Below, piece by piece: positions 55,140-56,399 of a stretch of 64,000 nucleotides of DNA (its first letter is position 1; each line of letters begins with the position of its first letter). The position numbers were made by a program, and so were the translations under genes. The stretch is from assembly GCF_040183065.1 (NCBI RefSeq), contig NC_091120.1, forward strand, positions 183,608,396 to 183,672,395, given 5' to 3'. Below the pieces are notes generated by a model. That model had not been told where the DNA came from. It worked only from the letters and a program-made list of their open reading frames with translations, and ran no database searches. This DNA is from Periplaneta americana (taxonomy: Eukaryota; Arthropoda; Insecta; Blattodea; Blattidae).

Positions 55140-55206
55140 AATCTATATTGTTTGACTATAATTATATGTGTACAAAACCGCCTTTGCTTATCATAAAATA
55201 AATAAA

Positions 55207-55254
55207 TTTTCATTAACGTTTTCGATACTTGTGTATCATCTTCAGATGTAAAAT
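55207..55254 (-). ncRNA. Hammerhead-ribozyme-like motif (left arm)
   Basis: Minus-strand twin of 56240-56287 with the same core, stems and expected cleavage position. Confidence 0.5.
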
Positions 55255-55855
55255 GTTAGATTAATATGATGAAAACCTTGCCTATTAAATGGAACTTAAT
55301 GTGGTAATTTTCGGGTCATATTAGTGTGATTGCTTGGACTTAACTTAGGTTGATCTATGATATACATGCTATGTTAGGTTAAATCACTGCGAGTCATATG
55401 ATATGATCTAAAATATAAAATAAAACTGTTTAAGAATTGTAACCACTATCAGCGTAGTTATTGAAAAGTGAACACTTTGTATAAACACTTTAAGAGTTTA
55501 AATCATTTTGAACATGTGTTGGCTGTATTTGCCGATTTAAAGTTCGTTGAATCGGCAAATACAGCCAACATATGTTCAACGTGATTATAATCTTTCAAAG
55601 TGATTTTACAAAGTGTTCACATTTCAATGACTACGCTAATAGTGGTTACAATCCTTAAACAGTTTTATTTTTATATATTTTAGATCATATCACATGACTA
55701 GCGGTGATTTAAATTGGCAAATACAGCCAACACATGTTCAAAATGATTTAAACTGTTAAAGTGTTTATACAAAGTGTTCACTTTTCAATAACTACGCTAA
55801 TAGTGGTTACAATTCTTAAACATGATGAAAGAGTGATGGAACGGAGAAAATTCTC

Positions 55856-55926
55856 TCCGGCGCCGGGATTTGAACCCGGGTTTTCAGCTCTACGTGCTGA
55901 TGCTTTATCCACTAAGCCACGCCGGA
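55856..55926 (-). mobile_element. SINE-B tRNA-like head, inverted copy
   Basis: Minus strand folds as a tRNA: acceptor TCCGGCG/CGCCGGA, D stem GCTT/AAGC, anticodon stem TCAGC/GCTGA with loop ACGTAGA, T stem CCGGG/CCCGG. Immediately to its right (55927-56050) a second, plus-oriented SINE-B begins within the anticodon arm, so the two are joined head to head. Confidence 0.7.
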
Positions 55927-56050
55927 TACGCTGAAAACCCAGGTTCAAATCCCGGCGCCGGAGAGAATTTTTCTCCGTTCCATCACTCTTTCATCATGTG
56001 ATGACGCAGAATATCTGCATGGAAATATCATATGTACTTCGGTACATCAA
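55927..56050 (+). mobile_element. SINE-B partial copy
   Basis: Starts inside the anticodon arm (GCTGAAAACC), has box B GGTTCAAATCC and ends with the ATGTACTTCGGTACAT tail shared with 9227-9390. Confidence 0.7.
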
Positions 56051-56239
56051 AATAAATTCTTAAACAGTTTTATTTTATATTTTAGATCATATCATATGAC
56101 TCGCAGTGATTTAACCTAACATAGCATGTATATCATAGATCAACCTAAGTTAAGTCCAAGCAATCACACTAATATGACCCGAAAATTACCACATTAAGTT
56201 CCATTTAATAGGCAAGGTTTTCATCATATTAATCTAACA

Positions 56240-56287
56240 TTTTACATCTGAAGATGATACACAAGTATCGAAAACGTTAATGAAAAT
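56240..56287 (+). ncRNA. Hammerhead-ribozyme-like motif (right arm)
   Basis: Stem I TTTTACAT pairs with ATGAAAAT (CAT/AUG, an A-A mismatch, then UUU/AAA). Core CTGAAGA (56248-56254) fits CUGANGA. Stem II GATAC/GTATC has an ACAA loop. GAAA is followed by a palindromic stem III AACGTT (56273-56278) and A at the expected cleavage site (56279). As in the PLE copy, one extra U precedes stem II. Independent stems with the same architecture make coincidence unlikely. Confidence 0.52.
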
Positions 56288-56399
56288 TTATTTATTTTAT
56301 GATAAGCAAATGCGGTTTTGTACACATATAATTATAGTCAAACATTAATAGCTTATCGGCAAACTTCAACATGAAATTAATCTATATTGTGTTTATATT

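What the first reader, a model, noticed from the sequence alone, without database searches (positions are those of the whole stretch)
55152..56378. Protein-free palindromic retroposon with outward-facing hammerhead-like motifs at both ends
Seen: long inverted arms, a perfect 12-bp flanking repeat, and at each end the series CTGAAGA - stem GATAC/GTATC - GAAA - palindromic AACGTT - A, with a stem I (CAT/ATG plus UUU/AAA) that pairs only if the ribozyme fold is real. Known: minimal, probably dimeric hammerheads with tiny stem III occur in flanking repeats of Penelope-like elements. Inference: a non-autonomous PLE-dependent element, perhaps copied as a palindrome, that has also picked up a SINE.
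Basis: partly seen in the sequence, partly recalled or inferred. Interest (0 to 1): 0.85.

Follow-up and report, generated by a model that had tools for sequence, protein, structure and literature searches.

The report
Two-headed insertion of a Penelope-like retrotransposon
This is a dead, cut-short insertion of a Penelope-like retrotransposon made of two copies joined head to head, a known layout whose sister copies here suggest that each insertion is written from both ends of the broken DNA at once.

Summary
The sequence observation is correct: 293-nt inverted arms, 12-bp flanking repeats and a hammerhead-like motif in each arm. The interpretation needs changing. The arm is the 3' end of a Penelope-like element (PLE) in the same genome: longer, themselves damaged, copies carry reverse transcriptase and GIY-YIG endonuclease sequence, then a 3' region with an intron, then this arm. 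The window copy lacks protein because both halves are 5'-truncated; no separate protein-free family is needed. Of 40 distinct loci (the window's own included), 28 have two detectable arms. In 28 of 28, one arm starts at an outer site (the 'tail') and the other 28-43 nt inside it. Their inner junctions all differ, so the palindrome forms anew at each insertion. Partner arms differ at a common variant in 5 of 24 pairs, and 5 loci lack the intron exactly. This favours two sense RNAs copied from the two target strands and joined by short homology, over self-priming. Inverted repeats plus one tail are already described for PLEs. A second, distant PLE in the window has the same layout and a hammerhead-like motif with all three stems changed but still paired. 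New member of a known kind; the mechanistic evidence is the interesting part.

The parts
55140..55151 (.). target-site duplication, left copy (AATCTATATTGT)
55146..55540 (-). arm without tail: 5'-truncated PLE 3' end, reference (L010) positions 932 to 538; its outer 6 nt overlap the duplication (microhomology)
55211..55248 (-). hammerhead-like motif of the no-tail arm
55552..55822 (+). inner part of the tail arm (~160-bp units), reference 381-651
55823..56054 (.). nested tRNA-type SINE with inverted 5' part, flanked by AATTCTTAAACA; not part of the PLE
56055..56347 (+). outer part of the tail arm (pLTR-like), inverted repeat of the left arm
56245..56282 (+). hammerhead-like motif of the tail arm; predicted cut after 56279
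   Evidence: cut position from hammerhead numbering (recalled)
56348..56378 (+). 31-nt 'tail' present on this arm only (reference 933-963)
56379..56390 (.). target-site duplication, right copy

Best explanation
It is one insertion of a canonical Penelope-like retrotransposon: two 5'-truncated copies of the element's 3' end, head to head, between 12-bp target duplications. Shown: the arm is the 3' terminus of a PLE with RT and GIY-YIG endonuclease sequence; each of the 28 two-armed copies has one arm starting at the tail site and one at an inner site; the palindromes formed independently; some copies descend from spliced sense RNA; some arm pairs carry different source variants. Inferred: the endonuclease makes a staggered cut of about 12 nt. 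One exposed 3' end primes reverse transcription at a fixed, protein-set site (tail arm). The other primes on a second sense RNA at an inner site, helped by a few bases of homology (no-tail arm). The two cDNA ends then anneal through short homology and are repaired, giving a palindrome with variable truncation. The hammerhead-like motif sits in the PLE's terminal repeat; I see no sign that its cleavage defines the template.
For: PLE identity: RVT_1 (E 1.1e-16) and GIY-YIG (E 2.7e-5) in pieces directly upstream of the same 3' region in L049; the stretch upstream of the 3' region is shared at 94-98% over 467-1489 nt among L036, L039, L042, L044, L045. One tail arm (start 961-963) plus one no-tail arm (920-935): 28 of 28. 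Duplication median 12 nt, 28 different sequences. Microhomology at the no-tail junction mean 3.18 nt vs 0.68 permuted, 0 of 2000 permutations as high. 28 different pairs of inner end points; 15 of 20 direct joins share >=3 nt, against 7% by chance. Intron exactly absent in 5 loci (L009, L018, L019, L025, L041), present in 6 (L010, L023 acceptor only, L034, L036, L039, L042). Common A/T variant at reference 849 differs between partner arms in 5 of 24 pairs. In vitro, a lizard PLE protein cuts and extends both strands and starts at two adjacent internal sites that match the tail (PMC11167929, parts 1-2 of 4 read).
Against: Partner arms are more alike than random: 19 of 24 concordant at 849 (0.0049 of permutations as few discordances); mean difference 0.0153 vs 0.0218, and the partner is the closest arm, or tied for closest, in 11 of 25 pairs. 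The window's own arms differ at only 1 of 279 sites, as self-priming would also predict. Of 40 distinct loci, 12 lack two detectable arms: L020 has only a ~9-nt tail stub, L022 and L031 look single-armed with duplications, 9 are unresolved. The sample is the best-scoring matches of one search. No full-length copy with a 5' terminal repeat was seen, and the coding copies seen are damaged. The spliced copies could descend from one spliced source. Site 849 lies in the loop of the hammerhead-like stem II, so recurrent change there is not excluded. In the lizard assay no difference in start site between strands was apparent, unlike the one-tail rule here.
Confidence: 0.78

Rival explanations
1. Self-priming: a single cDNA (or antisense RNA copy) folds back and copies itself, giving the palindrome, as proposed for rotifer Penelope elements.
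For: Proposed in PMC3846280 (passages). Partner arms are closer than random; the window pair differs at 1 of 279 sites.
Against: 5 of 24 pairs differ at a common variant, where the private substitution rate is 0.0046 per arm site; 8 further discordances at six other shared sites. Spliced copies require a sense RNA at some point in their descent. The no-tail end has its own homology to the target, which fold-back does not predict.
Confidence: 0.12
2. A non-autonomous, protein-free family copied as a ready-made palindrome.
For: The window copy has no PLE coding sequence (tblastn of the L049 pieces hits the window only at 45 kb); the motifs face outward on both arms.
Against: The same arm is joined to RT and endonuclease sequence in other copies; the 28 inner junctions differ, with different arm lengths.
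Confidence: 0.04
3. Twin priming on one RNA: as in LINE 5' inversions, the second strand primes upstream on the same RNA.
For: Microhomology at the second priming site and in the middle resembles twin priming (recalled for LINE-1).
Against: Both arms usually cover the same RNA stretch, so the same molecule would have to be copied twice; 5 of 24 pairs need two templates.
Confidence: 0.1
4. Fold-back or Mutator-like DNA transposon with long terminal inverted repeats.
For: Long inverted arms, tandem units inside, direct flanking repeat.
Against: Ends are asymmetric (tail on one arm only), inner ends ragged, introns spliced out, and the coding partner is RT plus GIY-YIG.
Confidence: 0.01

Closest known systems
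Penelope elements of Adineta vaga and the 'typical Penelope structure' described there (PMC3846280, passages)
   Same: inverted terminal repeat completing the insert, a 31-bp tail optional at one of the inverted repeats, 8-10-bp duplications, introns kept, palindromic inner junctions
   Different: here 28 two-armed copies of one family could be compared (247 scored matches, both arms counted); tail on exactly one arm in 28 of 28; spliced and unspliced copies coexist; evidence favours two sense templates, not the self-priming proposed there
Poseidon element of Anolis carolinensis, PAc (PMC11167929, parts 1-2 of 4)
   Same: hammerhead-type motif in the terminal repeat with an ATG at the start of stem II; reverse transcription starts inside the RNA some 85-92 nt past the cut (from the paper's numbers) vs 56-71 and 97-99 nt here; tail of 30-40 bp
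   Different: here that ATG runs into a stop after 8 codons (read by eye); the two start sites are used one per arm, whereas no strand difference was apparent in the lizard assay
Retrozymes (non-autonomous elements with hammerhead ribozymes; PMC7761336, passages only)
   Same: hammerhead-type motif and short tandem units
   Different: the motif lies in the arms only, not in each tandem unit; PLE coding partner present; inverted rather than tandem layout

Membership tests
Penelope-like element (canonical, RT then C-terminal GIY-YIG) | reverse transcriptase of the element in longer copies | tested here: met
   RVT_1 E 1.1e-16 in L049:1990-3312:- and 6.1e-10 in L050:4419-5198:+
Penelope-like element (canonical, RT then C-terminal GIY-YIG) | GIY-YIG endonuclease downstream of the RT | tested here: met
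   GIY-YIG E 2.7e-5, L049:1500-2030:-, above the curated cut-off; in a different frame from the RT in that copy
Penelope-like element (canonical, RT then C-terminal GIY-YIG) | inverted terminal repeats with 30-40-nt tail at one end and short target duplications | tested here: met
   28 of 28 two-armed copies, start sites 28-43 nt apart, duplication median 12; 12 of 40 loci lack two detectable arms
Penelope-like element (canonical, RT then C-terminal GIY-YIG) | direct repeat (pLTR) at the 5' end of full-length copies | tested here: inconclusive
   none recognised upstream of the coding parts of L049 and L050, which are 5'-incomplete; genome search unreachable
Penelope-like element (canonical, RT then C-terminal GIY-YIG) | introns kept in inserted copies | tested here: met
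   6 loci with the intron, 5 without
Penelope-like element (canonical, RT then C-terminal GIY-YIG) | placement of the RT among PLEs in a tree | not tested
Minimal type I hammerhead ribozyme of PLEs | CUGANGA...GAA core with three stems | tested here: met
   descriptor with core and stems I-III: 4 window hits, 0 in 100 Markov windows; one extra U after A9 in all four
Minimal type I hammerhead ribozyme of PLEs | stems kept while sequence changes | tested here: met
   two families in the window differ in all three stems and keep pairing, though the descriptor itself asks for pairing; inside the family 10 of 689 pair cells broken, 2 changed to T-G, none compensatory
Minimal type I hammerhead ribozyme of PLEs | match to an Rfam hammerhead model | tested here: not met
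   no hammerhead match at E<=10 in 55100-56420; free fold unremarkable, z -0.29
Minimal type I hammerhead ribozyme of PLEs | self-cleavage | not testable with these tools
   needs an RNA assay; none of the 56 inner ends listed is at the predicted cut (864/865), nearest 860, 855, 849
Retrozyme | tandem units each with a hammerhead, no coding partner | tested here: not met
   motif only in the arms, coding partner present
DNA transposon with terminal inverted repeats | two equal ends and a transposase | tested here: not met
   ends differ by the tail in 28 of 28; partner encodes RT plus GIY-YIG

The most novel reading that the evidence does not exclude
For this PLE, and perhaps PLEs in general, the head-to-head palindrome is the normal product of transposition, not an aberration: each integration couples two target-primed reactions, one per DNA strand, on two sense RNA molecules held in one dimeric particle. 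The 'tail' is the mark of asymmetry: one strand starts at the protein-set outer site, the other at an inner site guided by homology to the 12-nt overhang.
Probability: 0.55. Interest if true: 0.7.

Novelty: new member of a known kind. Interest (0 to 1): 0.5.

Why it matters
How Penelope-like elements integrate, and why copies are so often inverted with one optional tail, has been open: a 2013 paper inferred self-priming, on an antisense template if introns are to be kept (PMC3846280), and a 2024 assay showed cutting and extension on both strands but left the later steps unproved (PMC11167929). A genome with many similar copies lets the competing models be read from end points, splice junctions and shared variants. 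The copies here point to two sense templates, one per strand, and give a sharp prediction (one tail arm per two-armed insertion) that can be tested in any PLE-rich genome or in vitro.

Tried and rejected
Rfam at gathering scores over the window and at E<=10 over 55100-56420: no hammerhead match; the miRNA-type hits in the palindrome are below their gathering scores, as expected of any hairpin. Minimum-free-energy folds of the motif and of the start region are ordinary. Pfam PF26215, which I recalled as an animal helix-turn-helix found in PLEs, is not in the library. A loose DNA pattern for the motif gave one unrelated match, no more than chance. Test for hammerhead-cleaved templates: no inner end at the predicted cut; five ends lie at 840-860, just upstream, which could be pausing at a structure but is not cleavage. 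Reading the arm as a DNA-transposon repeat or a retrozyme was dropped once the coding partner was found. The Cervera 2014 and Lunse 2017 papers on PLE hammerheads are not held; I know them only from the citations in PMC7761336 and from recall. PMC12910113 (passages) added only that PLEs have a pseudo-LTR and GIY-YIG endonuclease.

The planned larger survey (short arms, other PLE families, full-length copies) could not be run: the genome search was unreachable. So all copy statistics rest on the best matches.

Full report
What is in the sequence. The finding's description holds. Inverted arms of 293 nt, 99% complementary, lie at 55146-55438 and 56055-56347, and the 12-bp repeat AATCTATATTGT occurs in the window only at 55140 and 56379. 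A strict descriptor (CUGANGA, stem II of 4-7 pairs, GAA, palindromic stem III, stem I of at least 3 pairs, at most one extra base after A9) finds four places in the window and none in 100 Markov windows. The element also holds ~160-bp units, and a tRNA-type SINE at 55823-56054 with its own 12-bp duplication.

What it is. A search of the source genome (3.23 Gb, 91 contigs, unnamed) gave 247 matches, both arms counted, with only 40 of 3262 candidates scored. I hold 50 loci, of which 40 are distinct insertions, the window's own (L001) included (L004, L005 and L028 repeat others; L044-L050 are longer re-fetches). In longer copies the sequence upstream of the 3' region continues, at 94-98% identity between copies over 467-1489 nt, into a reverse transcriptase followed by a GIY-YIG endonuclease. 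That is the canonical order of a Penelope-like element (order recalled; PMC11167929 describes it too). The copies read are damaged: in L049 the two parts are in different frames. Between the coding part and the arm lies a short 3' region with a GT-AG intron, then the ~160-bp units. So the window element is the 3' end of a PLE, present twice, head to head, each half 5'-truncated. I did not find a full-length copy, and I did not place the RT in a tree.

How the ends look. I used the copy L010 (963 nt) as a coordinate ruler. In 28 of 40 loci both outer ends are arm ends. In 28 of 28, one arm starts at 961-963 and the other at 920-935, 28-43 nt apart within a copy. The ruler ends at 963, so starts slightly beyond it show only as extra bases. 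The other 12: L020 has a ~9-nt tail stub opposite a no-tail arm and a 12-nt duplication, which fits the rule; L022 and L031 look like single arms with duplications of 11 and 9 nt; nine (L009, L010, L013, L019, L025, L030, L036, L040, L042) are unresolved. Duplications have median length 12, and the 28 are all different. In L002 the automatic call gives 7 nt with one mismatch; one search gives 11 nt beyond a short repeated end. At the no-tail junction the target continues into the arm sequence for 3.18 nt on average, against 0.68 when flanks are permuted (0 of 2000 as high). At the tail junction the start is nearly fixed, often followed by G or GA that is probably templated.

How the middle looks. 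The 28 inner junctions use 28 different pairs of end points. Twenty are direct joins (gap of 3 nt or less), of which 15 share at least 3 nt, where random joins of the same sequence would do so in 7% of cases. Gapped local alignment may lengthen some overlaps. Eight show a gap between the aligned parts: some are element sequence that the ruler aligns badly at the tandem units (for example L001, L003, L012, L038), L039 holds coding sequence, and L034 holds 870 nt of mostly unidentified sequence. In such copies the listed end points are limits of the alignment, not exact. The palindrome was nevertheless made separately at each insertion, since arm lengths and junctions differ throughout.

What the templates were. 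The intron is removed exactly in 5 loci (L009, L018, L019, L025, L041) and kept in 6 (L010, L034, L036, L039, L042, and L023, where only the acceptor is present). In L018 the spliced arm is the no-tail arm, in L041 it is the tail arm, so a spliced sense RNA can stand behind either; the spliced copies may go back to one spliced source. A common A/T variant at reference 849 is concordant in 19 and discordant in 5 of 24 arm pairs, and 8 further discordances occur at six of the other seven shared-variant sites. Self-priming would make the two arms identical at birth; with a private substitution rate of 0.0046 per arm site, five discordances at one site by later mutation are very unlikely (binomial 2.5e-6 using the full private rate), unless that loop position is hypermutable. 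Random pairing would give about 11.8 discordances, and the partner is the closest arm, or tied for closest, in 11 of 25 pairs, so partners often come from the same source. The window's own pair differs at 1 of 279 sites and does not by itself decide. I read this as two sense RNA molecules per insertion, often but not always from one locus.

Model. A staggered cut of about 12 nt exposes two 3' ends. One primes at the protein-set outer site and yields the tail arm; the other primes on a second RNA at an inner site with help from a few matching bases; the two cDNAs meet, anneal by short homology and are filled in. The cut, the two primings and the repair are inferred; the end points, junctions and splice states are observed. 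An independent support is the lizard PLE protein, which cuts and extends both strands and starts reverse transcription at two adjacent internal sites that match the tail (PMC11167929, parts 1-2 of 4 read). That paper saw no apparent difference in start site between strands, which does not match the one-tail rule here and is an open point.

The hammerhead motif. Inside this family, 10 of 689 stem-pair cells are broken and 2 changed to T-G, with no compensatory change; dead copies are expected to decay. The better test is a second PLE that I found in the same window (45137-46537). It has inverted arms, endonuclease-like coding sequence on both strands (tblastn 42-43% identity; Pfam GIY-YIG E 0.0077, below its cut-off), a 12-bp duplication CCCTATATTTCT, and a 44-nt tail on the left arm only (my reading). 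Its motif has GGCU/AGCC for CAU/AUG, GGUG/CACC for GAUAC/GUAUC and ACAGCUGU for AACGUU, with the same core and the same extra U. Three stems changed and still paired is good evidence that the fold is kept by selection, with the reserve that it rests on two families and that the descriptor asks for pairing (its control is the 0 of 100). Rfam recognises neither at gathering scores, nor this one at E<=10 (the 45-kb motif was not tried at that level). Whether it cleaves is untested. None of the 56 inner ends lies at the predicted cut (864/865), so cleaved RNA does not seem to be the usual template; the lizard paper likewise found that ribozyme mutants do not affect insertion.

Known and new. An inverted terminal repeat with an optional 31-bp tail and a 9-bp duplication is given as the typical Penelope structure in PMC3846280 (passages; 8- and 10-bp duplications in other copies), and inverted repeats and 3' extensions are mentioned in PMC8969392 (passages). 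Minimal hammerheads in PLE terminal repeats are known (PMC7761336, passages). So the object is a known kind. What I did not see in print, in the searches (open-licence papers only; most seen as listings), is the one-tail rule over many copies, spliced and unspliced templates in the arms, or arm pairs with different source variants, used to choose between self-priming and two-strand priming.

Noticed in passing
window 45125-46549: Second, distant PLE insertion: head-to-head arms 45181-45373/46345-46537, 12-bp duplication CCCTATATTTCT, 44-nt tail on the left arm only, GIY-YIG-like coding on both strands, hammerhead-like motifs at 46446-46487 (+) and 45231-45272 (-).
   Followed up: partly
window 55823-56054: The nested tRNA-type SINE is itself partly palindromic: its two halves overlap from mid-tRNA onward (I4, I7) and it has a 12-bp duplication; LINE twin priming normally leaves no such overlap (recalled).
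   Followed up: partly
L034:3017-3886: 870 nt, mostly not in the reference, lies between a full-length no-tail arm and a tail-only stub; captured DNA or a nested element, not identified.
   Followed up: no
L018, L019, L025 at reference position 1: Three spliced copies begin at the same place (TATCAGCC/TACCAGCC), which in unspliced copies follows a TTTAG; either an upstream splice acceptor or a start site of a short transcript.
   Followed up: no
reference 840-860 in L014, L018, L033, L039, L041: Five of 56 inner ends fall inside the hammerhead-like region, just upstream of the predicted cut; possible pausing of reverse transcription.
   Followed up: no
window 9227-9298, 25736-25808, 32344-32416: Three further tRNA-like matches; the one at 9227 is a close relative of the nested SINE, 32344 a more distant one.
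   Followed up: partly
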